From Acidisoma sp. PAMC 29798 (GTDB lineage Bacteria > Pseudomonadota > Alphaproteobacteria > Acetobacterales > Acetobacteraceae), in contig NZ_CP126994.1 in assembly GCF_030252425.1 (NCBI RefSeq), positions 1,736,001 to 1,800,000 on the forward strand: DNA of 64,000 bases. The letters run 5' to 3'. The position numbers were made by a program, and so were the translations under genes. Each line of letters begins with the position of its first letter. Position 1 is the stretch's first letter. Shown in pieces: positions 16,248-30,152 of the stretch. A model generated the notes under the pieces. The model searched no databases. It saw nothing but the letters and a program-made list of their open reading frames with translations, and was not told the origin of the DNA.

Positions 16248-16583
16248 TCTCATGTCCTTTTCGTTCTGATGCGTCGTCGGCTTTGCCCATGCGCTGCTTG
16301 ACGGATGTTGCAAAGCCTGGAGATGCGTCCTGGGCAATGCCTCGCGACGGAATGCGCACGATCACCAAACCGTCAAAATTCGCTTGCCGAAGCCGACCTG
16401 CCCGAACAAGATACCCGCAGACACTGAGACGTGTCCGCGATCAGCGCCGTGCATCGGAACGCATAGAACCGTTCATAACGGTGAATGTGCCTGCGCGCGC
16501 GTTTGAACTGAGTGGTCACCGTGGGCGCCTGAACTATCTGACGCTAACCGATGCAAACGATCGATGAGAAGGGGCCTTTGGTC
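16248..16583. other. Divergent intergenic region queC / ABC importer
   Basis: This 336-bp stretch contains the start regions of two divergent units. It has no coding frame of credible length and no recognisable riboswitch fold for preQ1. The only clear structure is the inverted repeat at 16468-16482. Confidence 0.5.
16468..16482. promoter_or_regulatory. Short perfect palindrome, candidate operator
   Basis: ACCGTT-CAT-AACGGT is a 6-bp perfect inverted repeat with a 3-nt spacer, about 100 bp before the binding-protein start. It has the size of a dimeric repressor half-site pair, but no regulator gene lies nearby, so this is only a candidate. Confidence 0.35.
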
Positions 16584-18158
16584 ATGTCTGATATCCCGAA
16601 TGTTTTGACACCGAGCGGCCTGAAGCGACGCAGCCTGTTGGGTGGCGCCGCCGCCTTCGGTTTGGCGGTGCCCTTCGCCGGTGCATTGGGTCGTGCCCGC
16701 GCGGCGGATGCCACGCCCGTCAAGGGCGGCAACCTCAAAATCGGCATGAGCGGCGGCCAAAGCTCTGACTCTCTCGATCCCGCTCTGCTGACGAATTATG
16801 CGCCGACGCTCTTCAACTATTGCTGGGGTGAGACGCTGATCAATGTCGGTCTCGATGGCACGCCGCAGCCCAACCTCGCTGAATCCTGGACATCGTCCAA
16901 GGACGCGAAGATCTGGACGCTGAAGATTCGCAAGGGCGTGACCTTCCATAACGGCCAGACCCTGACCGCTGACGATTGCGTGAAAACCTTGCAGCGGCAT
17001 ATGGACCCGAAGACCAAGTCCGGCGCGCTTGGCGTGCTGGGTGGTATCGCAAGTGTCGCGACGGATGGTGACGCCATGGTCATCACGCTTAGTGGCGCGA
17101 ATGCGGATCTGCCACTGCTGGTCACGGATTATCACCTCGTTGTGCAGCCCGGCGGCGGCATCGACAAGCCGACGGCCGGCATCGGCACTGGCCCGTACAA
17201 GGTCGGCAATGTTCAGCCGGGCGTGCGGTATTCCGGCACGAAATATGCCGGCTACTGGAACAGCGAACTCGGCCATGTCGATTCAGTCGATGTCATCGTC
17301 ATGAATGACGACACGGCCCGCTCGGCCGCCCTGCAATCCGGCCAGGTGCATATCATCAACCAGGTCGATCCGAAGATCGTCAGCTTCATGAAGCGCAATC
17401 CGCGCGTGGTGATCGAGACGGTGGCGGGTCGTGGCCAGAACATCTTCAACATGTTCTGCGACACCGGGCCCTTCAAGAACAACGATGTCCGCATGGCGCT
17501 GAAGCTCGCGATGGACCGTGAGCAGCTCACCAAGCAGATCATGTTGGGCTATGCCTCGATCGGTAATGATTTCCCGATCAACAAGGCCTATCCGCTCTTT
17601 CCGTCCGACATTCCGCAGCGCACCTGCGATCCGGATCAAGCGAAGTTCTTCTACAAGAAGTCCGGCAATACCGATCCCATCGTGTTGCGCAGCGCCGAAG
17701 TCGCTTTCTCGGGCGCCGTCGATGCCGCCACGCTGTTTCAGCAGCAGGCACAGAAGGCCGGCATTCCCGTGCAAGTCGTACGTGAGCCCGATGATGGCTA
17801 TTGGTCGAACGTCTGGAACAAGAAGCCCTTCTCGGCCTCCTATTGGGGTGGCCGCGCAACGCAGGACCAGATGTATTCCACCGCCTATCTCTCCAAGGCC
17901 GATTGGAACGACACGCATTTCTTCCATCCGGAATTCGACACGATGCTGTTGCAAGCCCGTGGCGAACTCGATACCGCCAAGCGCGCCGAGATGTATCACG
18001 ACATGGGCATGCTGGTGCGTGACCAGGGCGGCTCGCTGCTGCCCTTCTTCAACGACTTCATCGATGCACGGTCCAGCACGGTGATGGGCTGGGTTACCGA
18101 TGCAAACGGTCCGCTGTCGAATTACCAGGCACCGTTGCGCGTCTGGCTGAAGGCCTAA
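16584..18158 (+). CDS. ABC importer solute-binding protein (family 5, peptide/opine type)
   Basis: The 524-residue periplasmic binding protein carries a twin-arginine-like export signal (LKRRSLLGGAAAFGLAVPFAGALGRARA) cleaved after ARA. The mature part has the SBP_bac_5 layout: GGNLKIGMSGG, ESWTSSKDAKIWTLKIRKGVTFHNG, GTGPYKV and RMALKLAMDREQL. Family ligands are di/oligopeptides, opines, nickel or related amines. ATG 16584 is preferred over ATG 16551 because AAGGGG lies 9 nt before it. It heads a four-gene transporter operon and is separated from the first permease by a strong hairpin with a T-run. Confidence 0.94.
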   Translation: MSDIPNVLTPSGLKRRSLLGGAAAFGLAVPFAGALGRARAADATPVKGGNLKIGMSGGQSSDSLDPALLTNYAPTLFNYCWGETLINVGLDGTPQPNLAESWTSSKDAKIWTLKIRKGVTFHNGQTLTADDCVKTLQRHMDPKTKSGALGVLGGIASVATDGDAMVITLSGANADLPLLVTDYHLVVQPGGGIDKPTAGIGTGPYKVGNVQPGVRYSGTKYAGYWNSELGHVDSVDVIVMNDDTARSAALQSGQVHIINQVDPKIVSFMKRNPRVVIETVAGRGQNIFNMFCDTGPFKNNDVRMALKLAMDREQLTKQIMLGYASIGNDFPINKAYPLFPSDIPQRTCDPDQAKFFYKKSGNTDPIVLRSAEVAFSGAVDAATLFQQQAQKAGIPVQVVREPDDGYWSNVWNKKPFSASYWGGRATQDQMYSTAYLSKADWNDTHFFHPEFDTMLLQARGELDTAKRAEMYHDMGMLVRDQGGSLLPFFNDFIDARSSTVMGWVTDANGPLSNYQAPLRVWLKA

Positions 18159-18168
18159 ATCCTTGCGG

Positions 18169-18218
18169 GCGCCCGGTGCAGCCTCTCTCTCCGATACCAA
18201 TGGCACCGGGCGCTTTTT
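18169..18218 (+). terminator. Intra-operon hairpin with T-run (partial terminator)
   Basis: GCGCCCGGTGC (18169-18179) pairs perfectly with GCACCGGGCGC (18203-18213), followed by five T. It lies between the binding-protein stop and the permease ATG at 18222. Such attenuators typically lower permease/ATPase expression relative to the abundant binding protein and also protect the upstream mRNA 3' end. Confidence 0.85.
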
Positions 18219-18221
18219 GCG

Positions 18222-19181
18222 ATGAGGTCACCGCTTTTTCGGCTGATCGGCCAACGCATCGCTATCGGCATCATCCTGCTCTGGGCCGTGTCGGGGCTCA
18301 TTTTCACAGGCACGCAGATTCTGCCCGGTGACGTGGCGCAGGCGATCCTTGGCCAGCAGGCGACCAAGGATTCGCTCGCCGCCGTACGCATCGAACTCGG
18401 CCTGAACAAGCCGGCCATCGTTCGGTATGGCGAGTGGCTGGAAGGCGCCGTGCAAGGCGATTTCGGTCGCAGCTACGTCAACCAGGATGATATCGCGACG
18501 GCAATCGGCCACCGGCTGGGCAATACGCTGTTCCTGGCCTTCTGGGCGGCGGTGATTTCCGTGCCGCTCGCGCTGCTGCTCGGCATGCTGTCGGTGCTTT
18601 ATCGGGACACGCTCCTCGATCGTATTCTATCCATCGTCACGCTGAGTACGGTGTCACTACCAGAATTCTTCTCGGGCTATTTGCTGATCTACATCTTCGG
18701 TGTGCAGCTCCGGTGGTTTCCCGCCAGTGCGCTCATCTACAACGGCATGGGGATCTGGGATCGGCTCTATGCCATCGCCTTGCCCTGCGCCACGCTGGTG
18801 CTCGTCATCGTCGGCTATATGATGCGCATGACCCGCGCGGCCATCCTGAATGTCATGTCATCGGCCTATGTCGAGACGGCGGAACTCAAGGGCCTGTCGA
18901 AGTTCCGCATCATCTGGCGGCACGCCTTGCCCAATGCGGTGGCGCCGATCATTCAGGTGATCGCGCTCAACCTCGCCTATCTCGTCGTCGGCGTTGTCGT
19001 CGTCGAAGTCATCTTCGTCTATCCAGGCATGGGCCAGTATATGGTTGACAGCGTTGCCAAGCGCGATGTGCCGGTCGTGCAGGCGTGCGGCCTCATCTTC
19101 GCGGCGGTCTATATCGTGCTCAATCTCGTGGCCGATGTCGCGGCCATCCTCGCCAACCCCCGACTGCGGCATCCGCGATGA
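18222..19181 (+). CDS. ABC importer permease (DppB-type)
   Basis: The 319-residue inner-membrane permease has six predicted helices. The N-terminal TM and ADVAQAILGQ-type segment precede the BPD_transp_1 domain (about 95-315). The EAA coupling motif reads AYVETAELKGLSKFRIIWRHALPNAVAP, the surface that contacts the ATPase. It forms the channel with the next gene; the overlap ATGA (19178-19181) indicates coupled translation. Confidence 0.95.
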   Translation: MRSPLFRLIGQRIAIGIILLWAVSGLIFTGTQILPGDVAQAILGQQATKDSLAAVRIELGLNKPAIVRYGEWLEGAVQGDFGRSYVNQDDIATAIGHRLGNTLFLAFWAAVISVPLALLLGMLSVLYRDTLLDRILSIVTLSTVSLPEFFSGYLLIYIFGVQLRWFPASALIYNGMGIWDRLYAIALPCATLVLVIVGYMMRMTRAAILNVMSSAYVETAELKGLSKFRIIWRHALPNAVAPIIQVIALNLAYLVVGVVVVEVIFVYPGMGQYMVDSVAKRDVPVVQACGLIFAAVYIVLNLVADVAAILANPRLRHPR

Positions 19182-20011
19182 TCACTATGATACGTCGCAT
19201 GCCAGTGTCTGCGATGATTGGCCTCACCGTCGTGATCATCATGGTGGCGGGTGCAATCCTGGCCCCCGTCATCTCGCCCTATGGCATGGCCGATATCGTC
19301 GGTGGGGTCTGGGATCCTTGGTCTCACAAGGACCTTCTCGGCACCGACAACCTCGGCCGCGATCTACTCTCCCGCATGATCTGGGGCGGGCGCATTACTA
19401 TTTTCGTCGCTGCCGCCGCGACTTTGCTGTCCTTCAGCATCGGCGTCACCCTCGGCTTTATCGCCGCCGTCACGCGGGGCTGGACCGAACAGATCCTGTC
19501 ACGCGCAGTGGATTTGGTGATGGCCGTGCCGACGCTGATTTTCGCTCTCGTGGTGCTGTCTGTGCTGCCGAGCGCCGTTTATGTGCTGATCCTGGTCATC
19601 GCCCTGCTCGACGCGACGCGGGTCTTTCGTGTCAGCCGGTCGATCGCCGCCGATATCGTCGTCATGGATTATGTCGAGGCCGCGCGTCTGCGTGGCGAAA
19701 AGATCGGCTGGATCATGCTGCGGGAGATTCTGCCCAACGCGATTTCACCGCTGCTCGCCGAAATCAGCCTGCGCTTCGTCTTTGCAGTGCTGTTCCTGTC
19801 CACGCTCTCCTTCCTCGGCCTCGGTATTCAGCCACCGACGCCCGATTGGGGCGGCATGGTGAAGGACAATAAGGACGGCATCGTCTTCGGCGTTTCGGCC
19901 GCTCTCATTCCGGGCGCTGCGATCGCGGCCCTGTCGATCTCGGTCAATCTGGTGGCCGATTGGATCCTCAACCACACCACCAGCCTTAGGGGAGGACGGG
20001 ACGCTGTCTGA
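19178..20011 (+). CDS. ABC importer permease (DppC-type)
   Basis: The 277-residue second permease has an N-terminal TM (IGLTVVIIMVAGAILAPVI), the LGTDNLGRDLLSRMIWGGR signature of DppC/OppC proteins, then the transporter domain with the EAA loop DYVEAARLRGEKIGWIMLREILPNAISP. ATG 19178 overlaps the dppB-like stop; an in-frame extension upstream would overlap dppB deeply and is rejected. The stop lies 8 nt inside the proposed start of the ATPase gene. Confidence 0.95.
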   Translation: MITMIRRMPVSAMIGLTVVIIMVAGAILAPVISPYGMADIVGGVWDPWSHKDLLGTDNLGRDLLSRMIWGGRITIFVAAAATLLSFSIGVTLGFIAAVTRGWTEQILSRAVDLVMAVPTLIFALVVLSVLPSAVYVLILVIALLDATRVFRVSRSIAADIVVMDYVEAARLRGEKIGWIMLREILPNAISPLLAEISLRFVFAVLFLSTLSFLGLGIQPPTPDWGGMVKDNKDGIVFGVSAALIPGAAIAALSISVNLVADWILNHTTSLRGGRDAV

Positions 20012-21659
20012 CGCTCCTTCTGCCCGCCTTCTCACGGTCGATGACCTGCGCATCGAAGTCACGCTCTATCCGCCCGGTGAGCCTTCCAAGAACGTCGCCA
20101 TTGTCGATGGCGTGTCTTTCACGCTCGATCGCGGCAAGGTTCTTGGCCTGATCGGCGAATCCGGCGCCGGCAAATCCACCATCGGTCTCGCCGCCATGGC
20201 GTATGGGCGGGGCGGTTGCCGCATCACCGGTGGCGTCATCGATTTCGACGGGCGGGATATGCGGGCCTTGTCGCGCACCGGCATTCGCGCCGTGCGTGGC
20301 AACAAGGTCTCTTACGTCGCGCAATCGGCGGCCTCTGCCCTCAATCCGTCGCGCCGCATTACCGATCAGGTGATCGAAGCAGCGGTGCGCCACGGGCTGA
20401 TGTCGCCCAAGGAAGCGACGGAGCGCGCGCGCTGGCTGTTCAAGATGCTGGAACTGCCGTCACCGGAGACGATCGGGGAGCGCTTTCCGCACCAGCTGTC
20501 CGGTGGGCAGTTGCAGCGTATCGCGACGGCCCTCGCACTGTGTCCGAAGCCTGACCTGATCGTCTTCGATGAGCCGACAACGGCGCTGGATGTGACGACG
20601 CAGATCGGCGTGCTCGCCGTCATCAAGCGCGTGATCGAGGAGTCCGGCACGGCCGCGCTTTATATTTCCCATGACCTCGCGGTCGTCGCGCAGATCGCCG
20701 ATGACATCATGGTACTGCGCCACGGCAAGATGGTGGAATACGGCACAGCGCGACAGATCATCGAAGCGCCGCGCGAGGAGTATACGCGCAAGCTGGTTTC
20801 GGTGCGTCGCATTCCGAACCTGACCCATGCCGATCCGACATCGCCGAATCTGCTGCGCGTGCAGAACATCAATGCGTCTTACGGCCCGGTGCCGGTGTTA
20901 ATGGATGTGTCCTTCGATGTGCCGGTCGGTCAGACGGTCGCGATCGTGGGCGAATCGGGTTCGGGTAAATCGACCCTCGCGCGTGTCGTCACCGGGTTGC
21001 TAAAACCCACCGGTGGCAGCGTCAGTTTCAAAGGCAAGCCGCTCGCGCCCGACTACCATAGGCGTCCGCGCGAGGAGCTGCGGCTGCTGCAGATGATTTA
21101 CCAAATCCCCGATGTCGCCATCAATCCGCGGCAGACAGTGCGCCATATCATTGGCCGTCCACTGAGCTTCTATTTCGGTCTTTCCGGTCGGGCGCGGGAA
21201 ACGCGCATTCGCGAATTGATGGACTCCATCGAACTGCCGGTGGCCCTGGTGGATCGCTATCCGGCCGAGCTATCCGGTGGCCAGAAGCAGCGCGTTTGCA
21301 TCGCGCGTGCGCTCGCCGCAAAGCCGGAACTCATCATTTGCGATGAGCCGACATCGGCGCTCGATCCCCTGGTTGCGGACGGCATTCTGACGCTGCTGAT
21401 GAAGCTGCAAGCCGAGACCAAGGTGTCCTACCTCTTCATCACGCATGACATTGAAACCGTGCGCGCCATTGCCGATCATGTCGTGGTCATGCATCGCGGC
21501 CGGCTGGTGCGCAGTGGCCCGAAGGCTATCGCCCTCGCGCCACCCTTCGATGATTACACCGATCTGCTTTTGGCTTCGGTACCGGAAATGCATGTCGGTT
21601 GGTTGGAACAGGCCGTAGAGCGCAAGCGCGTAGCGCTTGCGACGCAATTGACGAAGTAG
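20004..21659 (+). CDS. Fused two-domain ABC importer ATPase (DppD-DppF type)
   Basis: The 551-residue protein carries two complete nucleotide-binding domains: the first with Walker A GESGAGKST, signature LSGGQLQRIA and DEPTTALD; the second with GESGSGKST, LSGGQKQRVC and DEPTSALD. It energises uptake through the two permeases. No ATG or GTG gives a whole first domain. The GTG at 20112 would remove the first strands (LLTVDDLRIEVTLYPPGEPSKNVAIVDGV). In frame, CTG 20004 is preceded by AGGGGAGG (19988-19995) at 8 nt, giving the most coherent start, though CTG initiation is rare. The stop is followed directly by the convergent hydrolase stop. Confidence 0.9.
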   Translation: MSDAPSARLLTVDDLRIEVTLYPPGEPSKNVAIVDGVSFTLDRGKVLGLIGESGAGKSTIGLAAMAYGRGGCRITGGVIDFDGRDMRALSRTGIRAVRGNKVSYVAQSAASALNPSRRITDQVIEAAVRHGLMSPKEATERARWLFKMLELPSPETIGERFPHQLSGGQLQRIATALALCPKPDLIVFDEPTTALDVTTQIGVLAVIKRVIEESGTAALYISHDLAVVAQIADDIMVLRHGKMVEYGTARQIIEAPREEYTRKLVSVRRIPNLTHADPTSPNLLRVQNINASYGPVPVLMDVSFDVPVGQTVAIVGESGSGKSTLARVVTGLLKPTGGSVSFKGKPLAPDYHRRPREELRLLQMIYQIPDVAINPRQTVRHIIGRPLSFYFGLSGRARETRIRELMDSIELPVALVDRYPAELSGGQKQRVCIARALAAKPELIICDEPTSALDPLVADGILTLLMKLQAETKVSYLFITHDIETVRAIADHVVVMHRGRLVRSGPKAIALAPPFDDYTDLLLASVPEMHVGWLEQAVERKRVALATQLTK

Positions 21660-23660
21660 CTAAACCCCGTCACGGGGAATGCGTGTCGACCAAGTGCGGG
21701 AGGCGACGCGTGTATCCCCCTCGAAGGCGTCGAGCGTCGCATCGATCACGAACTCCGTCTTCGTCGCCGTCATGACCGTGCGGCTATCGGCGCGCGTTTG
21801 CCAATCGCCACGCCCGACGGCCAGGGTGCAACTCACCTCCACAGACGCGGACAGCGGATCGCGCGCCTGGATGCGATAGACCTCCCGCTGGATCGATTCC
21901 GTCTCCAGCCCATGCGGCAGGATGGTCGAGCGGCCGGTGTCGTTGAGGGAGGAGATCACCATCTCCCCGGTCGCGGCATCATGGGTGACGGTCCGATAGC
22001 TGTCAGCCGGGCGCTGCCATGTCCGCTCCAAAGGCGGTGCGCCCTCGGCTGGTTGCCATGTCACCGCCGCATCCTCGGCGCGCGGCGCGCGGACGGGAAG
22101 CGAGATAGTGGAGACGCCGGCAAACAGGCTGAGCGTGACGGCTTCCGGCGACGGCCAGATGATCGGCCAATAGGTGGTGGAGACAGCGATGCGCAGCCGA
22201 TGGCCAGGCGCGAAGCTATGCGCCGCATCGTTCAGGGCGATCCTGATCCGCGTGCGCTGGCCGGGGATCATCTCCTCCGGCTGCTCGTGCCCGTTGCGAT
22301 GTGTGAGGTTGAGCAAACCGTAGCTCACCCGAAGGGAGCCGCCGGTGGGTGACACGTCATTCAACCGCACGCAGAGTGTGGCGAGCGGGCGATCGACCGC
22401 CAGCTCCAACTCCAACACGGGCGTGCCGAGAATCTCCAGCCGCTCCGTCAGCGGCTCGGTGTCGAAGACCAGCGAACGGCCGTCATCGACCAGTTGATCG
22501 GTCGGCTGATCGGGGATCAGGCCGAAGCTGAACCAAGTGCCGGAGGCTTCGCCCAGGTTCTGCGGAGACGACCAATCGAGCTGCGTCTCCGGTCCCGGTT
22601 GCGCGCGCAAGCCCTCGGCATTGAGGGCCAGTGTCACGCCCGTGCGCGGCCAGGCGTCTTCCGCCACCCAGCGGCCGGGTCTCTCGGCATATTGGGCGAG
22701 AGGTTCCGCCCAATCCTGCAGCCAGATGCGATACAGCGGTTCCGCCATCACACCGGTGTCTTTTCCGGCGAGATGCTGGTCGAACCAGCGCAGGCATTCC
22801 TGCAAGAAGCCGATGCGCGGCGCGGGTTTGGCGAAATGCGGATATTTATGCGCCCAGGGACCGGTGATGCCCTTGCGTGGCACATGCGCCAGACCTTCGA
22901 CGAGACGCGACACGGTGTTCGAATAGCCGTCGGCCCAGCCGCCGACCACGAGCACGGGCGCGGTGACATCGGCGAAATTCTCGCAAATCGAGCCGTGCTT
23001 CCAATAGGCGTCACGGCGTTGATGACGCAGCCAGGTATCGATCAGCAGCGGCATGGTGTCGAGGCGGTTGAGCCACATCTCCCGCCACCGGTCACCCACC
23101 AGCGCGGCGTCCGGCGGGCGGGACATATAGCCGAGCATGGTCGAAGACCATTGCAAATTGTCATTGAGCAGACATCCGCCCATGTAGTGGATGTCATCTG
23201 CATAACGATCGTCGGTGGAACAGATGGTGACGACGGCGCCGAGCGCGGGCGGCCGCCGCGCCGCGATCTGCAAGCCGTTGAAGCCGCCCCAGGAAATGCC
23301 GATGATGCCGACCTTGCCGGAAGACCAAGGCTGGGACGCGATCCAGGCGATCACCTCCAGCGCGTCATCCTGTTCCTGCGCGATGTATTCGTCTTCGAGC
23401 AGGCCATCAGATTCGCCACTGCCGCGCATATCGACGCGAACACAGGCATAGCCATTGCCGGCGAAATAGGGATGCGTCAAGGCATCGCGATCGACCGTTC
23501 CATCCCGCTTGCGATAGGGCAGGAACTCAAGGATCGCAGGGGCTTTCGGTGCATCGATGGGCAGCCAAATGCGGGCGGCGAGGCAGGTGCCGTCGGCCAA
23601 GGGAATCCAGACGTTCTCCAGCTCCTGCACGCCGTAGGGAAAGCGATCGATAACCTGCAC
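21660..23660 (-). CDS. CocE/NonD family serine hydrolase (peptidase S15-like)
   Basis: The 666-residue alpha/beta hydrolase is in the X-Pro dipeptidyl-peptidase/cocaine-esterase family. Ser123 lies in the GISWGGF elbow, Asp in the GGWADGYSN segment and His in ITGPWAHKYPH complete the triad. The C-terminal half is the usual jelly-roll beta domain. No signal peptide is seen, so it is probably cytoplasmic. GTG 23660 was chosen since GGAGG lies 8 nt upstream and homology begins at VIDRFPYGVQELENVWIPLADGT; a longer frame would overlap the divergent gene's start. Members cut esters, amides or X-Pro peptides. Placement inside an importer/catabolic block suggests it processes the imported compound. 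Confidence 0.88.
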   Translation of the reverse strand: MQVIDRFPYGVQELENVWIPLADGTCLAARIWLPIDAPKAPAILEFLPYRKRDGTVDRDALTHPYFAGNGYACVRVDMRGSGESDGLLEDEYIAQEQDDALEVIAWIASQPWSSGKVGIIGISWGGFNGLQIAARRPPALGAVVTICSTDDRYADDIHYMGGCLLNDNLQWSSTMLGYMSRPPDAALVGDRWREMWLNRLDTMPLLIDTWLRHQRRDAYWKHGSICENFADVTAPVLVVGGWADGYSNTVSRLVEGLAHVPRKGITGPWAHKYPHFAKPAPRIGFLQECLRWFDQHLAGKDTGVMAEPLYRIWLQDWAEPLAQYAERPGRWVAEDAWPRTGVTLALNAEGLRAQPGPETQLDWSSPQNLGEASGTWFSFGLIPDQPTDQLVDDGRSLVFDTEPLTERLEILGTPVLELELAVDRPLATLCVRLNDVSPTGGSLRVSYGLLNLTHRNGHEQPEEMIPGQRTRIRIALNDAAHSFAPGHRLRIAVSTTYWPIIWPSPEAVTLSLFAGVSTISLPVRAPRAEDAAVTWQPAEGAPPLERTWQRPADSYRTVTHDAATGEMVISSLNDTGRSTILPHGLETESIQREVYRIQARDPLSASVEVSCTLAVGRGDWQTRADSRTVMTATKTEFVIDATLDAFEGDTRVASRTWSTRIPRDGV

Positions 23661-23748
23661 GCGGAAGACCTCCAGGAGGGCGAATTGCGGCACAATGGAG
23701 CGGCGGACGCGGCTTGGGAAGGCTGTCCCGATGGTGTAGTTTGGCGCC

Positions 23749-25788
23749 ATGTCCAGCGACCCGCTTCTACAGCCTTTCACCTTGAAACACCTTGTGTTGC
23801 GCAATCGATTTATGTCGACGGCGCATGAGCCGGCCTATACCGATGATGGCCTACCGAAGGCGCGCTACCGGCTTTATCATGAGGAGAAGGCGCGCGGTGG
23901 CATTGCGCTGACGATGATCGGCGGCTCCGCCGTGGTCGCGCCGGATAGTCCGCAATCCTTCGGCAATATCCTGCTCTACAAGGATGAGAGCGTCGGTTGG
24001 TTGCGCGAACTGGCTGATGGCGTGCACAACCACGGTGCGGCCGTCATGATCCAGATCACCCATCTCGGCCGCCGCACGAGTTGGAGCAAGGCCGATTGGC
24101 TGCCGGTGCTCGCACCCTCCAATGTGCGCGAGGCCGCGCATCGCGCCTTTCCGAAAATCATTGAAGATTGGGACATTGCGCGTGTGGTCGCGGCCTATGC
24201 CGATGGTGCCGAGCGCGCGAAGGCAGCCGGTCTCGATGGGATCGAACTCGAAGCCTACGGTCATCTCATTGACCAGTTCTGGTCGCCCGCTACCAATAGG
24301 CGCGACGACGAATACGGCGGTTCGATCGAGAACCGCATGCGGTTCGGCATGGAGGTTTTGGTCGCCATCCGCGTGCGCGTGGGTCCCGACTTCCTCGTCG
24401 GTGTCAGGATGGTTTGCGATGAGGAATGGGAGCAGGGGTTGACGCGCGCAGATGGCATCTCCATCGCGCAACGTCTGACGCAGTCGGGCCTGATCGATTT
24501 CGTCAATGTCATTCGCGGCCATATCGATACCGATGAAGCGCTGAGCCATGTCATTCCCGGCATGGGCGCGCGGTCTGCACCGCATCTCGATTTCGCCGGT
24601 GAGATCCGTGCGGCGACACGACTGCCGACATTTCATGCCGCGCGCATTCAGGATGTTGCGACGGCGCGTTATGCGGTGGAGAGCGGTAAGCTCGACATGG
24701 TCGGCATGACGCGACCCCATATGGCCGATCCGCATATTGCGCGAAAGGTTATCGAAAAGCGTGAGCATGAAATCCGTCCCTGCGTCGGCATGGGGTATTG
24801 CATCGATTCCATCTATTCCTCCGGCGAAGGGCATTGCATCCATAATGCCGCGACCGGCCGCGAAGACAGCATTCCTCATGTCATTTTTAAAAGCATAGGT
24901 GCGCGCAGGAAGGTGGTGGTGGTTGGCGCAGGCCCTGCGGGGTTGGAAGCGGCGCGCGTCGCCGCCGAGCGTGGGCATGAGGTGGTGGTCTTCGAAGCCG
25001 CACCGAATGCCGGCGGGCAGGTGCATCTCACCGCCGCTCTCAAACGCCGTCGCGAGATCCTCGGCATTATCGATTGGCGCATATCGGAATGCACGCGGCT
25101 CGGCGTGCGATTCCACTACAACCTCTATGCCGAGGCCGGCGATGTCCTGGCGGAGGCACCGGATTGCGTCGTGATCGCGACCGGCGGCATTCCGGACACG
25201 AGTTTTCTCGAAACGGGCGCCGAGTTTGCGACATCAAGCTGGGATATACTGTCCGGTGCCGTGCGGCCTGCGGCCTCCGTCATTCTCTATGACGACAATG
25301 GTGGCCATTCCGGCATGACGGTGGCGGAGTTCCTGGCCGAGGCGGGTTCAGCGCTCGAGGTGGTGACGCCGGAGCGTACGCTGGCACCCGATGTCGGCGG
25401 CACCAGCTATCCGCCCTATTTCAAATCCTTGAACCAGCACAATGCGGCGATTACCATCAACCTACGGCTTCGCGCCCTCAAACGGACAGGCAATAGGATC
25501 ACCGGCGTGTTTTTCGATGAGTATGGCAAGCGTGATATCGAGAAAGAGGCCGACCAGATCGTGGTCGATCATGGTACTCTCCCTCTCGATGCGTTGTATT
25601 TCGCGTTGAAGCCCGCATCGGTCAATCTCGGTGAGGTCGATTACACTGCGCTGATCGCGGGCCGGCCGCAGACGGTGATGCGCAACGCTGACGGCGGTTA
25701 CAGGCTGTTTCGCATCGGCGATGCGGTGTCGAGCCGCAACATCCATGCCGCGATCTATGACGCTATCCGTCTCATGAAAGACATCTGA
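23749..25788 (+). CDS. Flavin/Fe-S oxidoreductase, N-methylproline-demethylase-like
   Basis: The 679-residue protein has an Old Yellow Enzyme FMN barrel (about 5-340, LRNRFMSTAHEPAYTDDGLPKARYRLYHEEKARGG) and a C-terminal FAD/NAD-binding half (VVVVGAGPAGLEAARVAAERG), the architecture of trimethylamine dehydrogenase and 2,4-dienoyl-CoA reductase. The N-terminal sequence closely resembles proteins annotated N-methylproline demethylase in alphaproteobacterial proline-betaine catabolism. The cluster loop RPCVGMGYC...GHC shows only three of the four usual Cys. It lies one base before the molybdoenzyme gene and opposite the S15-type hydrolase. The exact substrate is inferred, not shown. Confidence 0.82.
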   Translation: MSSDPLLQPFTLKHLVLRNRFMSTAHEPAYTDDGLPKARYRLYHEEKARGGIALTMIGGSAVVAPDSPQSFGNILLYKDESVGWLRELADGVHNHGAAVMIQITHLGRRTSWSKADWLPVLAPSNVREAAHRAFPKIIEDWDIARVVAAYADGAERAKAAGLDGIELEAYGHLIDQFWSPATNRRDDEYGGSIENRMRFGMEVLVAIRVRVGPDFLVGVRMVCDEEWEQGLTRADGISIAQRLTQSGLIDFVNVIRGHIDTDEALSHVIPGMGARSAPHLDFAGEIRAATRLPTFHAARIQDVATARYAVESGKLDMVGMTRPHMADPHIARKVIEKREHEIRPCVGMGYCIDSIYSSGEGHCIHNAATGREDSIPHVIFKSIGARRKVVVVGAGPAGLEAARVAAERGHEVVVFEAAPNAGGQVHLTAALKRRREILGIIDWRISECTRLGVRFHYNLYAEAGDVLAEAPDCVVIATGGIPDTSFLETGAEFATSSWDILSGAVRPAASVILYDDNGGHSGMTVAEFLAEAGSALEVVTPERTLAPDVGGTSYPPYFKSLNQHNAAITINLRLRALKRTGNRITGVFFDEYGKRDIEKEADQIVVDHGTLPLDALYFALKPASVNLGEVDYTALIAGRPQTVMRNADGGYRLFRIGDAVSSRNIHAAIYDAIRLMKDI

Positions 25789-25789
25789 G

Positions 25790-28063
25790 ATGAATGTCCC
25801 GTTCAAGCCGCATGCCGCCCATTGGGGAACCTTCTCCGCCCGTTGGCAGGACGGCAAGCTGGAGGTTCGCAACTTCGCCGGGGACCCTGATCCTAACGGC
25901 ATTGTTGAGAACTTTCCTGCGGCGCTGCGCCATCGCGCACGCATCGCCCAGCCGATGGTCCGTCGCGGCTGGCTGGAAGGCGGCGCAGGGCCGGACGCAC
26001 GGCGCGGTCGGGATGGGTTCGTGGCGGTCGGCTGGGATGAGGTGCTCGACCGCCTCGGCGACGAACTTCGTCGGCTGCGGCCGGAACAGGTGTTCGGCGG
26101 CTCCTATGGCTGGGCCAGCGCCGGGCGCTTCCACCATGCGCAGAGCCAGTTGCATCGGTTCCTCAATACCGCGATCGGCGGCTATGTGCGGTCAATCAAT
26201 AGCTATAGCGCCGGCGCCTCTGCCGTCATCGTGCCCCATGTCCTCGGCGATTATTCTGACCTGACGATGCACAACGTCACCTGGGAGCAGATCGCGGAGC
26301 ATAGCGACATCGTCCTCGCCTTCGGCGGCATGGCGCTGAAGAACAGCATGATCGCGGGCGGCGGCGTCAGCGCCCATGTCGAGCGTGGCGCGATGGACCG
26401 CGCCGTCGCGCGGGGTTGCCAATTCGTGCTTGTCGGGCCGCAGCGCAGCGACCTTCAGGACTCGGTGCATGCCGATTGGGTCAGCAATATCCCTGGCACC
26501 GATACGGCGCTGATGATGGCGCTGGTGCATACGCTGGTTGCCGAGAACCTGCATGATCGCGACTTCCTTGCGCGCTACACGGAAGGTTGGCCGATCTTCG
26601 AGGATTATCTGCGTGGCGTGACGGATGGCCAGCCGAAAGACGCCGCCTGGGCGGCCAAGATTACGGATATCCCGGCCGATGACATCATCGCTTTGGCGCA
26701 GCGCCTGCACGGCAAGCGTTGCGTCGTCGTCGTCGCGCATGCCCTGCAGCGCGCTGAACATGGCGAGCAGCCGGTCTGGATGGGCGCCGTGTTGGCGGCG
26801 GCGCTTGGCCAGATCGGCCTGCCCGGCGGCGGTTACGCCTATGGTCTCGGTGCCATCGCCTATTACGGGCGGCGGCAGAATGCCGTGCCGATGCCGACCT
26901 TGGGACAAGGCCGCAACGGCGTCGGCGATTACATTCCCGTCGCGCGCATCGCGGATATGCTGCTCAACCCCGGCACGCCCTATCGCTACAATGGCGAGAC
27001 CAGATCCTATCCCGAGATCAAGCTGATCTATTGGGCGGGCGGAAACCCCTTTCACCATCACCAGGATCTCAATCGTCTGCGCCGCGCCGTCGCGCAGGTC
27101 GATACATTCGTCGTGCATGAACTGGCCTGGACCGCGACGGCGCGCCACGCCGATATCGTGCTACCCTGTACGATGACCTTTGAGCGTGAGGATATCGGTG
27201 GCAATCCGCAAGATCCTTTGCTGGTTGCCATGCATCAAATCGCCGAACCTTACGGCGAAGCGCGAGACGATTACGCCATCTTCTGCGATCTGGCCGAACG
27301 GCTCGGCAAGCGTGACGCCTTCAGTGAGGGTCGCACGCCGCGCGAGTGGCTGGAGCATTTGTACGAGCGCACGCGAGACGGGTTGATCAAGCAAGACCTT
27401 ACGGCGCCGACATTTTCCGAATTCTGGGAAGCGGAGAGTCTCGTTCTACCGCAGAAGCCGGATGACGGCGGCAAGCTGCGGCGGTTTCGCGAAGACCCCG
27501 CGGGCTATCCGCTGACGACGCCGAGCGGTCGCCTCGAAATCTACTCTGCCACTGTGGCCAGCTTCAATGAGGCGGATTGCCCGGGTCACCCGGCCTGGCT
27601 GCCGCCGGCGGATGTGCCGAGTGCGGAGGCCCCGCTGTTCCTGGTCGCCAACCAGCCGGCGACACGGCTGCATAGTCAACTCGACTTCGGCGGTCATAGT
27701 GACGGCGCCAAGCGTCGGGGCAGGGAAGTGGCAAGCATGCACCCCGATGATGCGGCGGCGCGTGGCTTGGCGGACGGCGACATCATTCGGCTGTTCAATG
27801 CGCGCGGCGCTTGTCTCGCGTCGCTGCGCATCACCGATGGCATTCGTGCCGGCGTCATGCAGATTCCCACCGGCGCTTGGTATGATCCGCAGGATCCGGA
27901 GGAGGACATGCCGTTATGTGTGCATGGCAATCCGAATGTGCTGACGCGCGATGTCGGCAGTTCCTCGCTCGCACAGGGCTGCACGGGGCAATTGACCACC
28001 GTGCAGGTGGAGAAGTTCACCGGCAATCTGCCGCCCATCCGGGCGTTTGACCCGCCAAGCTAG
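25790..28063 (+). CDS. Molybdopterin oxidoreductase, biotin-sulfoxide-reductase (BisC) type
   Basis: The 757-residue DMSO-reductase-family enzyme lacks both an N-terminal Fe-S motif and a Tat signal, as in cytosolic BisC/MsrP-unrelated sulfoxide reductases. SYGWASAGRFH and NSYSAGASAVIVPHVLG match the active-site region, with Ser140 as the likely molybdenum ligand. The C-terminal molydopterin domain (about 625-745) ends with NVLTRDVGSSSLAQGCTGQ. Relatives reduce S- or N-oxides. ATG at 25790 is one base after the flavoprotein stop, so they are co-translated. The electron donor is not evident, but the adjacent flavoprotein is a candidate. Confidence 0.88.
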   Translation: MNVPFKPHAAHWGTFSARWQDGKLEVRNFAGDPDPNGIVENFPAALRHRARIAQPMVRRGWLEGGAGPDARRGRDGFVAVGWDEVLDRLGDELRRLRPEQVFGGSYGWASAGRFHHAQSQLHRFLNTAIGGYVRSINSYSAGASAVIVPHVLGDYSDLTMHNVTWEQIAEHSDIVLAFGGMALKNSMIAGGGVSAHVERGAMDRAVARGCQFVLVGPQRSDLQDSVHADWVSNIPGTDTALMMALVHTLVAENLHDRDFLARYTEGWPIFEDYLRGVTDGQPKDAAWAAKITDIPADDIIALAQRLHGKRCVVVVAHALQRAEHGEQPVWMGAVLAAALGQIGLPGGGYAYGLGAIAYYGRRQNAVPMPTLGQGRNGVGDYIPVARIADMLLNPGTPYRYNGETRSYPEIKLIYWAGGNPFHHHQDLNRLRRAVAQVDTFVVHELAWTATARHADIVLPCTMTFEREDIGGNPQDPLLVAMHQIAEPYGEARDDYAIFCDLAERLGKRDAFSEGRTPREWLEHLYERTRDGLIKQDLTAPTFSEFWEAESLVLPQKPDDGGKLRRFREDPAGYPLTTPSGRLEIYSATVASFNEADCPGHPAWLPPADVPSAEAPLFLVANQPATRLHSQLDFGGHSDGAKRRGREVASMHPDDAAARGLADGDIIRLFNARGACLASLRITDGIRAGVMQIPTGAWYDPQDPEEDMPLCVHGNPNVLTRDVGSSSLAQGCTGQLTTVQVEKFTGNLPPIRAFDPPS

Positions 28064-28064
28064 A

Positions 28065-28133
28065 GGGTGGAATACGCTGCGCTTTTCCACCCTACGATGT
28101 GTAGTAGGGCGGAAGAGCGTAGCGTTATCCGCC
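28065..28133. repeat. Inverted pair of REP-like palindromic repeats
   Basis: Two copies of a ~30-bp element face each other: a reverse copy (28065-28094) and a forward copy (28104-28133, GTAGGGCGGA ... TTATCCGCC). They sit between convergent stops and overlap the last 9 bases of the M3 peptidase gene. The pair can fold into a long hairpin and may terminate both transcripts. Further copies are at 30247, 37560, 41467 and 56360. Confidence 0.8.
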
Positions 28134-30152
28134 AGCTAATCCCCGGCTCTGCAGCAAGGCCGCCGTGCTCGGTGCGCGGCCACGGAAGGCCATATACAAC
28201 GCCATCGGGTCGCGCGTGTCGCCGGCGCTGAGGATATCGCGCAGCCGCCCGGCCGTGGCGGCGTCAAAGTAATCGCCGGCGTCCTTGAACGCCTCGAACC
28301 CGTCTTCGTCCAAGACCTGCGCCCAGAGATAGGAATAATAGCCCGCCGCATAACCGCCGCCGGAAAACAGATGCTGGAAATGCGCAGGGCGATGACGAAT
28401 GCCGATTTCCGCGGGCATGCCGATGCCGCCCAGAAACTCTCGCTCATAGGCCTCCAGGTCGAGCGTCTCCGGTGCCGGATGACGATGCAAGGCCATGTCG
28501 ATCAGCGCGGCGGCGGTATATTCCACGGTGCCGAAACCCTCGTTGAAGCCGCGTGCCGCGAGCAGGCGCGTGATCAAAGCCTCGGGGATCGGCGCACCCG
28601 TTTCGTGATGGACCGCGTAGGTCCGCAGCGTTTCCGGCAGCGCCATCCAGTGCTCGTAGATTTGCGAGGGCAACTCGACGAAATCGCGACGGACGGAAGT
28701 GCCGGACTGGCCGGGGTAGCGCACCTTACTCAGCAGCCCATGCAGGGCATGGCCGAATTCGTGAAACAGCGTCTCGGCATCGTCGAAGCTCAGCAGCGTC
28801 GGCTCTGATTTGGCGAAGTTGTTGTTATTGACGATGATCGGCGAAATCACCTCATCCATCGCCTCCTGGTCGCGGTAGCTGCTCATCCAGGCGCCGGAGC
28901 GCTTGTCCGGCCGCGCATAATGATCCGCGATAAACACGCCGACATGGCCATCCGCGTCCCGCACTTCATAAGCACGGACATCGGGATGATAGGTGGGAAC
29001 CTCCGGCCGGGGCGTGAAGGTGACGCCGAACAGCCGCGTTGCCGTGTCAAAGGCCGCTTGCTGGATGTTCTCCAGCACGAAATAGGGCTTCATCTCCGTC
29101 TCATCGACGGCGTAATCGGCCTGGCGCACCTTCTCGGCATAGTAGCGCCAGTCCCACGGCGCCAGCGCCCCGTTGAAGCCATCACGGCGGGCCACAGCGA
29201 GCAAGCGGTCCCGCTCTTCGGCCGCCTTGTGCTTCGCGGGCTCCCACACTTCCGCGAGCAGGCTTTCGGCCGCCGCCGGTGACCCCGCCATGCTGTCCGC
29301 GAGGCGGAAATCCGCGAAGCTCTCATAGCCTAACAGCTTCGCCCGCTCGCGCCGTAGAGACAGAATCTCGGGGATCAGCGCCCGATTATCATGCGCACCA
29401 GGATGGGTACCGCGCGCGATCCAGGCCTCATAGGCCGTCTCGCGCAGGTCGCGGCGGGCCGAAAATGTCAGGAAGGGTTCGATCAGCGAGCGCGACAGCG
29501 TCACAGCATAGCCGTCCAGGCCACGCTCGGTGGCCGCCTGGCGCGCGCCGGCGCGCACGAAGTCGGGCAATCCGTCGAGGTCGGTCTCGGCCAGCGGCAG
29601 GTGCCAGGCCTTTTCGTCATGCAACACGTTCTGGCCGAAGGCGGTGTGCAGCACGGCGAGCCGCTCGGAGATTTCGGTCATGCGCGTCTTCTCGGCGGGT
29701 CCGAGCGCCGCGCCGCTGCGCACGAAACTCAGATGCAGCCGGTCGAGCAGGCGCATCTGCGCCTCGTCCAGCCCCAGCGCCTCCCGCCGCCCGTGCAGCG
29801 CGTCGATGCGCTTGAACAGAGCCGGGTCGAGCGAGACCTGCATGCCGTGCTGTGCGAGCTTGGGGGACATGTCGCGGTCCAGCGCTTCCAGCGCTTCACC
29901 GCCGTAACTGGCGACGAGGTTGTGGAACACCGCGCCGACGCGGCCCAGCGCCCGGCCACTGCGCTCCAGCGCCTCGACCGTATTGGCGAAGGTAGGCGCC
30001 GCGGGGTCCGTGCCGATGGCCGCGATCTCGGCCAGGTTGTCGGCCATCGCGCTCTCGAAGGCCGGCGCAAAATGCGCTGGCGCGATGAGGTCAAAGGGCG
30101 GGGCGCCGAAAGGCGTGGTCCAGGGGGAGAGAAGGGGGTTGCTGTCGTCCAT
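28125..30152 (-). CDS. M3 family zinc metallopeptidase (peptidyl-dipeptidase Dcp-like)
   Basis: The 675-residue thimet-oligopeptidase-fold enzyme carries the zinc motif HEFGH (in DAETLFHEFGHALHGLLSKVRY), with the third ligand Glu in the GTSVRRDFVELPSQIYEHW helix. The N-terminus PLLSPWTTPFGAPPFDLI resembles Dcp. It degrades short peptides in the cytoplasm by releasing C-terminal dipeptides (Dcp) or cutting internally (oligopeptidase A); the two are hard to separate by eye. No signal peptide. Its stop lies within the palindromic repeat pair. Confidence 0.93.
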   Translation of the reverse strand: MDDSNPLLSPWTTPFGAPPFDLIAPAHFAPAFESAMADNLAEIAAIGTDPAAPTFANTVEALERSGRALGRVGAVFHNLVASYGGEALEALDRDMSPKLAQHGMQVSLDPALFKRIDALHGRREALGLDEAQMRLLDRLHLSFVRSGAALGPAEKTRMTEISERLAVLHTAFGQNVLHDEKAWHLPLAETDLDGLPDFVRAGARQAATERGLDGYAVTLSRSLIEPFLTFSARRDLRETAYEAWIARGTHPGAHDNRALIPEILSLRRERAKLLGYESFADFRLADSMAGSPAAAESLLAEVWEPAKHKAAEERDRLLAVARRDGFNGALAPWDWRYYAEKVRQADYAVDETEMKPYFVLENIQQAAFDTATRLFGVTFTPRPEVPTYHPDVRAYEVRDADGHVGVFIADHYARPDKRSGAWMSSYRDQEAMDEVISPIIVNNNNFAKSEPTLLSFDDAETLFHEFGHALHGLLSKVRYPGQSGTSVRRDFVELPSQIYEHWMALPETLRTYAVHHETGAPIPEALITRLLAARGFNEGFGTVEYTAAALIDMALHRHPAPETLDLEAYEREFLGGIGMPAEIGIRHRPAHFQHLFSGGGYAAGYYSYLWAQVLDEDGFEAFKDAGDYFDAATAGRLRDILSAGDTRDPMALYMAFRGRAPSTAALLQSRGLAGG

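What the first reader, a model, noticed from the sequence alone, without database searches (positions are those of the whole stretch)
16584..28063. Uncharacterised uptake-and-catabolism module: importer, S15-type hydrolase, OYE-type flavoprotein, BisC-type molybdoenzyme
Seven genes with little space between them: complete importer, a hydrolase that could cut an ester/amide/X-Pro bond, a TMADH-like demethylase and a cytosolic S-/N-oxide reductase read through a 1-nt gap with the flavoprotein. I know of no defined pathway with this combination. It suggests processing of an oxidised, N-methylated, acyl- or peptide-linked compound. This is the best candidate in the window for an undescribed system.
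Basis: partly seen in the sequence, partly recalled or inferred. Interest (0 to 1): 0.75.

Follow-up and report, generated by a model that had tools for sequence, protein, structure and literature searches.

The report
N-methyl catabolism cluster with BisC reductase
These seven bacterial genes look like a locally assembled set for importing a betaine-type compound and removing its methyl groups, with a molybdenum enzyme joined on behind; the core is a variant of known biology, and the odd pairing offers one testable new idea.

Summary
The seven genes are real and the coordinates good, but they are not one operon: the S15/CocE hydrolase (21660-23660) is on the minus strand between an Opp-type importer and the flavoprotein-molybdoenzyme pair. 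The flavoprotein belongs to the HpbA/StcD-type N-methylproline N-demethylase family (58-59% to two records annotated hpbA, 60.4% to the one close hit on S. meliloti pSymB). Of 107 other homologue loci, 46 have a Rieske, MttB or dimethylglycine-dehydrogenase-like gene within 11 kb, and 13 have importer or S15 genes of the window's type (4 have both importer and S15), against 0 of 40 molybdoenzyme loci. The BisC-type molybdoenzyme does not belong to that set: it adjoins the flavoprotein only here (1 of 108 loci) and in none of 14 other sampled genomes that hold both. Best reading: importer + hydrolase + N-demethylase for a conjugated N-methyl amino acid or betaine, with a BisC-type S-/N-oxide reductase recruited behind it. 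Most novel reading not excluded: the demethylase feeds electrons to BisC, whose natural donor is unknown. New variant of a known kind; substrate unproven.

The parts
16584..18158 (+). Solute-binding protein, family 5 (Opp/Nik type), twin-arginine-like leader
   Evidence: SBP_bac_5 E 1.9e-71; start chosen from the ribosome-binding site
18222..19181 (+). Importer permease 1 (OppB/NikB type)
   Evidence: BPD_transp_1; Opp2B 269.7 bits, below its cutoff of 350
19178..20011 (+). Importer permease 2 (OppC/NikC type); start ATG overlaps permease 1 by 4 nt
   Evidence: BPD_transp_1; start read from the translation
20004..21659 (+). Fused double ABC ATPase; probable CTG start at 20004 (first ATG/GTG/TTG in frame is GTG 20112)
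   Evidence: ABC_tran, two stretches; N-terminus compared by eye with relatives
21660..23660 (-). S15/CocE-NonD hydrolase, convergent with the importer, divergent from the flavoprotein
   Evidence: Peptidase_S15 + PepX_C; CocE_NonD 228.4 bits, over cutoff 66.3; GISWGG motif and GTG start
23661..23748 (.). 88-nt divergent intergenic region, likely holding promoters of hydrolase and flavoprotein
   Evidence: gene boundaries; promoter role is inferred, no promoter scan was run
23749..25788 (+). HpbA/StcD-type FMN/FAD N-demethylase with three-cysteine motif CVGMGYC...C
   Evidence: Oxidored_FMN; 58.9% to an hpbA-annotated record; tree; motif
25790..28063 (+). Leaderless BisC/Dor/Tor-type molybdoenzyme (S-/N-oxide reductase), 1 nt after the flavoprotein stop
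   Evidence: bisC_fam 888.7 bits, below curated cutoff 1017.55; Ser/Tyr/Trp active-site residues kept

Best explanation
The locus is a locally assembled catabolic module with a guest gene. The Opp-type importer brings in an amide-, ester- or peptide-linked N-methylated amino acid or betaine (inferred). The S15/CocE hydrolase, divergently placed, cuts off the acyl or peptidyl part (inferred from family; substrate unknown). The HpbA/StcD-type flavoprotein removes an N-methyl group from the released tertiary or secondary amino acid, of the N-methylproline / dimethylglycine kind, giving formaldehyde (inferred from family and neighbours). If the compound is quaternary, the first methyl would be removed by one of the Rieske oxygenases encoded elsewhere in the genome. 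The BisC-type molybdoenzyme was placed directly behind the demethylase in this lineage; most likely it is a general cytosolic S-/N-oxide reductase (methionine sulfoxide, biotin sulfoxide, N-oxides) now transcribed with the demethylase. Shown: gene identities, order, family placement, recurrence of importer or S15 genes near the demethylase, lack of molybdoenzyme linkage in the sampled relatives. Inferred: substrate, reaction order, co-transcription.
For: Flavoprotein: 58.9% over its full length to a record annotated HpbA, beside a betaine/proline-type importer, 58.2% to a second; 60.4% to the only place on S. meliloti 1021 pSymB at E<=1e-130, the replicon said to carry stcD, an N-methylproline demethylase (PMC12239276, passages). 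A 60% homologue in R. leguminosarum sits with a betaine importer, a pyrroline-5-carboxylate-reductase-like gene, ETF and three formaldehyde-oxidation genes (the ETF and two of the formaldehyde genes were found in that locus only, of 108). Rieske, MttB or DMGDH-like genes within 11 kb of 46 of 107 other homologues, importer or S15 genes near 13 of 107; 0 and 0 in 40 molybdoenzyme loci at the same thresholds. Both importer and S15 in 4 of 107: L034, L068, L090, L256. In congener G002 a 72% S15 ortholog lies in the order S15-Rieske-regulator-flavoprotein (the Rieske scores 409 of 670 bits with GbcA). In L068 and L253 flavoprotein and S15 are 3 nt apart and 1 nt overlapping. Six Ring_hydroxyl_A proteins in this genome, two 40-43% like the flavoprotein-associated type. 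No molybdoenzyme linkage elsewhere.
Against: No Rieske, MttB or DMGDH-like gene was seen beside this copy (gene starts listed, Pfam run only on 16551-30152), and 46 of 108 homologue loci show none of the tested partners. Only 4 of 107 loci show both a betaine-type gene and importer/S15 genes. The S15 family is functionally broad. The binding protein's best relative in 60 genomes is 49%. The control loci come largely from another family than the flavoprotein loci, and the loci are related to each other. The 1-nt gap suggests that the molybdoenzyme is not a mere bystander. No ligand or enzyme assay exists; the hpbA name is an annotation, and the window protein is in a sister subclade of that record.
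Confidence: 0.55

Rival explanations
1. Electron relay: the flavoprotein hands the electrons from N-demethylation straight to the BisC-type enzyme, so that a sulfoxide or N-oxide serves as electron acceptor instead of ETF.
For: 1-nt spacing; no ETF in this cluster, while a homologue elsewhere sits with ETF genes and the related dgcAB are followed by fixAB (PMC12093977, passages); [quoted passage not shown]
Against: The pairing was seen in this genome only (1 of 108); 14 other genomes with both genes keep them apart; ETF genes are themselves rare beside homologues (1 of 108), so their absence here says little.
Confidence: 0.12
2. N-oxide funnel: the imported compound is a tertiary-amine N-oxide; the molybdoenzyme reduces it, then the flavoprotein demethylates it.
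For: Order and spacing of the two genes; most DMSO reductases accept a wide variety of S- and N-oxides (PMC8417374, passages).
Against: The Tyr/Trp/Ser residues are shared with BisC and TorZ, so they do not single out N-oxides; none of the 107 other flavoprotein loci has such a reductase.
Confidence: 0.15
3. Bystander: the molybdoenzyme is a housekeeping repair enzyme for methionine or biotin sulfoxide that only borrows transcription. This is compatible with the best explanation of the core.
For: It is the only full-length strong match in this genome, and in relatives it lies in changing places without a recurring neighbour. Of 37 relatives with at least 7 kb, 17 have a co-oriented gene upstream; measured to the window-equivalent start the gap is 34 nt in one (L196) and 59 nt or more in the others.
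Against: Using the earliest possible start, 4 of those 37 (L196, L139, L278, L137) could overlap the upstream stop, and several have close co-oriented downstream genes (L263, L265, L266, L281, L195), so it is not strictly solitary. A 1-nt spacing is tight for a bystander.
Confidence: 0.45
4. Alkaloid-ester pathway: importer and CocE-like hydrolase take up and cut a plant alkaloid ester or its N-oxide, and the flavoprotein N-demethylates the amine.
For: The closest solved relatives of the hydrolase are cocaine esterases, 100 bits.
Against: Low similarity; the neighbours of the flavoprotein's relatives speak for betaines and N-methyl amino acids.
Confidence: 0.05

Closest known systems
HpbA / StcD N-methyl-L-proline N-demethylase (proline betaine, stachydrine catabolism)
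   Same: 58-60% identity over the full length, same three-cysteine motif, same best NCBIfam models at similar scores
   Different: The window protein is in a separate subclade (CVGMGYC, not CVGANYC); no Rieske partner, betaine importer or TetR gene seen beside it
Glycine betaine catabolism gbcAB / dgcAB-fixAB
   Same: OYE-type dehydrogenase for an N-methyl amino acid; the Rieske partner in congener G002 scores with the GbcA model, below its cutoff
   Different: No DgcB, ETF or Rieske gene beside it; DgcA itself was not compared by sequence here
Importer + CocE/NonD cassettes of Alphaproteobacteria (Aureimonas AU20, Ketogulonicigenium vulgare)
   Same: Binding protein, two permeases, one ATPase gene and hydrolase in one run
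   Different: No HpbA-type flavoprotein annotated within 9 kb; hydrolase co-oriented, not inverted
BisC / TorZ / TorA S-/N-oxide reductases
   Same: Same fold family, Ser, Tyr and Trp positions as BisC and TorZ; no leader, as in BisC
   Different: 39% to E. coli BisC, 38% to TorZ, 36% to TorA, separate clade; 1 nt behind a flavoprotein
Trimethylamine / histamine dehydrogenases
   Same: OYE barrel, Fe-S motif and nucleotide-binding domain, E about 1e-42
   Different: One cluster cysteine missing; Glu at the TMADH Cys30 position

Membership tests
HpbA/StcD N-methylproline demethylase | Full-length homology over about 680 aa | tested here: met
   58.9% over 1-679 to an hpbA-annotated record; 60.4% to the pSymB hit
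HpbA/StcD N-methylproline demethylase | Lies inside the subclade of the named members | tested here: not met
   Named member L186 is in the CVGANYC group; the window protein is in a separate 32-row subclade, 31 of them with the CVGM motif. Same family, not shown to be HpbA itself
HpbA/StcD N-methylproline demethylase | Demethylates N-methylproline | not testable with these tools
   needs an assay
Stachydrine/betaine catabolic cluster | Rieske or MttB demethylase and betaine importer adjacent | tested here: not met
   none of these at the tested thresholds near the window copy (one search used a 5-kb copy of the locus); Rieske genes elsewhere in the genome
Trimethylamine dehydrogenase | Four cluster cysteines and 6-S-cysteinyl FMN (recalled) | tested here: not met
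   second cluster cysteine replaced by Met, Glu at the Cys30 position
BisC family model TIGR00509 | Score above curated cutoff | tested here: not met
   888.7 bits, cutoff 1017.55
Dor/Tor/BisC type III S-/N-oxide reductases | Serine Mo ligand and conserved Trp | tested here: met
   Ser140 and Trp108 in 58 of 58 rows, Tyr106 in 56 of 58; that type III enzymes carry a serine ligand: PMC7759655; which serine is recalled
X-Pro dipeptidyl-peptidase PepX | PepX subfamily model above cutoff | tested here: not met
   80.8 bits, cutoff 642; CocE_NonD met at 228.4 bits
Opp/Dpp/Nik importer of known ligand | Any equivalog binding-protein model above cutoff | tested here: not met
   best 152.1 bits to a nickel model, cutoff 600

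The most novel reading that the evidence does not exclude
The N-demethylase flavoprotein is the electron donor of the BisC-type reductase: a soluble cytosolic couple in which removal of an N-methyl group drives reduction of a sulfoxide or N-oxide, with an S15 hydrolase and a dedicated importer supplying a substrate that carries both an N-methyl amine and an oxidised S or N. To my knowledge it would be the first genetically linked donor for a BisC-type enzyme.
Probability: 0.12. Interest if true: 0.75.

Novelty: new variant of a known kind. Interest (0 to 1): 0.4.

Why it matters
The recurring importer or S15 genes near HpbA-type demethylases point to a class of conjugated N-methyl compounds (ester-, amide- or peptide-linked) that bacteria import and demethylate. 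I did not find it described, but only one completed paper search aimed at the S15 side (73 papers, the 8 listed were off the point). The 1-nt pair gives a concrete candidate for the open question of BisC's electron donor (PMC7759655, passages). The missing cluster cysteine in all 104 aligned demethylases raises a direct question about the metal centre of this demethylase family.

Tried and rejected
A TMADH or histamine dehydrogenase identity was rejected (missing cysteine). A mycofactocin OYE identity was rejected: 473.7 bits against a cutoff of 793.15. A single seven-gene operon was rejected (strand of S15). A conserved flavoprotein-molybdoenzyme pair was rejected (1 of 108; 0 of 14 other genomes).

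Insertion: I looked for an empty site by placing the flanking M3 peptidase in four congeners; its neighbours there are not those of the window (three of the four share theirs with each other), so no insertion could be shown. GC of the seven genes (0.599-0.644) is only slightly below that of most neighbours; not decisive.

A guess that S15 frees N-terminally methylated X-Pro peptides was considered: the PepX models fail and the paper search listed only papers off the point (listing); kept as an idea only. Ergothioneine/hercynine was considered after a histidine-ammonia-lyase-like gene turned up near the flavoprotein in L034, but among the fetched loci it was found in that one only. No structure was predicted, because the tool returns no coordinates with which to measure the cluster site.

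Limits: the neighbour survey uses a crude ORF caller and tblastn thresholds. Truncated loci lower the counts and can make the cassette look lost, so the 9 changes counted on the FastTree tree (26 of 105 inner branches under 80% support) are not 9 proven gains. At looser clustering a few window-like permease or ATPase genes do occur in molybdoenzyme loci (2 and 1 of 36; one is L195). Related loci make the Fisher values unreliable as probabilities. Two flavoprotein loci hold other, non-BisC molybdoenzymes (FdhF/YdeP type in L197, nitrate reductase in L186).

Papers: PMC7759655, PMC8417374, PMC12093977 and PMC12239276 passages; PMC12478193 abstract, outline and passages; all others search listings only. 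The original HpbA paper was not held and is recalled.
Full report
WHAT IS THERE. The window lies in a genome of 4.99 Mb in 5 contigs (G000, contig C1), whose nearest named flavoprotein relatives are Alphaproteobacteria. From 16584 to 28063 it holds a family-5 solute-binding protein, two permeases and a fused double ATPase (all +), an S15/CocE-NonD hydrolase (-), and then an OYE-type flavoprotein and a BisC-type molybdoenzyme (both +) separated by one nucleotide. The hydrolase start is best placed at GTG 23660, behind GGAGG and at the N-terminus of its 72% ortholog, leaving 88 nt before the flavoprotein ATG at 23749. Hydrolase and ATPase are convergent with touching stops. By strand there are three units; transcription was not measured.

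FLAVOPROTEIN. Pfam gives Oxidored_FMN and NAD/FAD domains. No NCBIfam equivalog is met (best mycofact_OYE_2, 473.7 of 793.15 bits); the pSymB homologue and the hpbA-annotated protein score alike (501 and 466 bits). Identity is 58.9% to the Paracoccus record annotated 'N-methyl-L-proline N-demethylase HpbA', 58.2% to a second such record, and 60.4% to the only place on pSymB at E<=1e-130. That pSymB carries stcD, an N-methylproline demethylase, is from PMC12239276 (passages); that this hit is stcD is my inference, because the stored record has no gene table. On a FastTree tree of 108 rows the window protein is in a 32-row subclade (31 with a CVGM motif, 99% local support), apart from the CVGATYC and CVGANYC groups, the latter holding the hpbA record. 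Its closest rows are from Inquilinus limosus and Lichenibacterium minor (76%), whereas the four congeners carry 62-64% homologues of the other subclades, which suggests horizontal exchange of the flavoprotein.

THREE-CYSTEINE MOTIF. Where TMADH and histamine dehydrogenase have CxxCxxC, this protein has CVGMGYC. In 104 of 104 aligned homologues (window included; 3 of 107 rows were left out, as under 40% identity or holding a stop) three cysteines (345, 351, 363) are invariant and no other cysteine reaches 90%; the missing position is Met, Ala or Gln in the motifs printed. Two relatives of about 30% identity keep the full motif. TMADH numbering is recalled.

COMPANY OF THE FLAVOPROTEIN. In 107 other loci (mean length about 16.6 kb with the window's own, some truncated) Rieske, MttB or DMGDH-like genes lie within 11 kb in 46, these or betaine-importer genes in 52, importer or S15 genes of the window's type in 13, and both sets in 4. 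Of the 13, S15 is in 7, importer genes in 10, both in 4. The window-type molybdoenzyme was in none of the 107. With the same thresholds 40 molybdoenzyme loci showed none of these genes. The cassette label needs at least 9 changes on the tree, part of which may reflect truncated loci. Partner identities were checked with Pfam/NCBIfam on single representatives: Rieske + Ring_hydroxyl_A (GbcA model 409 of 670 bits), MTTB, DAO + GCV_T, DMSP_lyase, and in L046 TauD with GBBH-like_N. Congener G002 has S15 (72%)-Rieske-regulator-flavoprotein. L034 (Lichenibacterium minor) has two permeases and the ATPase, then S15 and flavoprotein 26 nt apart. In 46 of 108 loci none of the tested partners was seen.

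MOLYBDOENZYME. It aligns almost end to end with DMSO reductase (603 bits), has the serine, tyrosine and tryptophan of BisC and TorZ, and is 39% like E. coli BisC, 38% TorZ, 36% TorA, outside their clade. In 299 family genomes 59 have a close copy (E<=1e-235) and 49 a flavoprotein homologue (E<=1e-190); 7 have both, this one included, where 9.7 would be expected. In 385 class genomes 30 have the molybdoenzyme, and 9 of these 30, this genome included, also a flavoprotein at E<=1e-150. Of the 14 other genomes with both, three have them on one contig (57 kb, 144 kb and 2.1 Mb apart) and the rest on different contigs. Among 37 relatives with at least 7 kb of locus (45 distinct sequences at 55% or more; 8 dropped as too short), 17 have a co-oriented upstream gene; measured to the window-equivalent start the gap is 34 nt in L196 and 59 nt or more in the others, but with the earliest possible start 4 of 37 would overlap the upstream stop. 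No recurring neighbour was found. [quoted passage not shown]

MECHANISM. Most likely: uptake of a conjugated N-methyl amino acid or betaine, hydrolysis by S15, N-demethylation by the flavoprotein with formaldehyde release; the molybdoenzyme is a lineage-specific addition, probably a general S-/N-oxide reductase. Shown: identities, order, recurrence. Inferred: substrate, reaction order, electron flow. This genome also encodes six Ring_hydroxyl_A proteins, two 40-43% like the flavoprotein-associated type, a DMGDH-like protein 43% like that of L251, and a second locus with two S15 genes, a 2-hydroxyacid dehydrogenase and a Rieske oxygenase, so a first betaine step could be supplied in trans.

NOVELTY. 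The core is a new variant of known N-methyl amino acid / betaine demethylation clusters, with an unusual importer and hydrolase. The flavoprotein-BisC pairing is new to me but seen once; the relay reading is bold, unproven and testable.

Noticed in passing
window 24781-24837 (codons 345-363 of the flavoprotein) and homologues: All 104 aligned HpbA/StcD-type demethylases keep only three of the four cluster cysteines of TMADH; the fourth is Met, Ala or Gln.
   Followed up: partly
window 20004-20112: The fused ATPase seems to start at a CTG overlapping the permease stop; the relative L144 has ATG at that place.
   Followed up: partly
L303 (G000:C1:2920001-2939900): Second locus in the same genome with two S15/CocE genes, a 2-hydroxyacid dehydrogenase and a Rieske oxygenase in a row; one search reports one TAA inside the match of one of the two S15 copies.
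   Followed up: partly
L046 4342-6514: Two TauD-type dioxygenases, one with a gamma-butyrobetaine-hydroxylase-like N-terminus, lie between the importer and the flavoprotein.
   Followed up: partly
L195 (Bosea sp. F3-2 plasmid): The molybdoenzyme lies near a gamma-glutamyltransferase and an Opp-type importer and overlaps a CoA-transferase gene by 4 nt.
   Followed up: no
L196 (Pantoea dispersa plasmid): A 59% molybdoenzyme homologue starts 34 nt behind an amino-acid importer ATPase.
   Followed up: no
L197 and L288: HpbA-type flavoproteins are followed after about 30 nt by a DMSP-lyase-family gene.
   Followed up: no
L259 vs window 21660-25788: The same S15 ortholog (72%) sits beside flavoproteins of two different subclades in two species of one genus.
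   Followed up: partly
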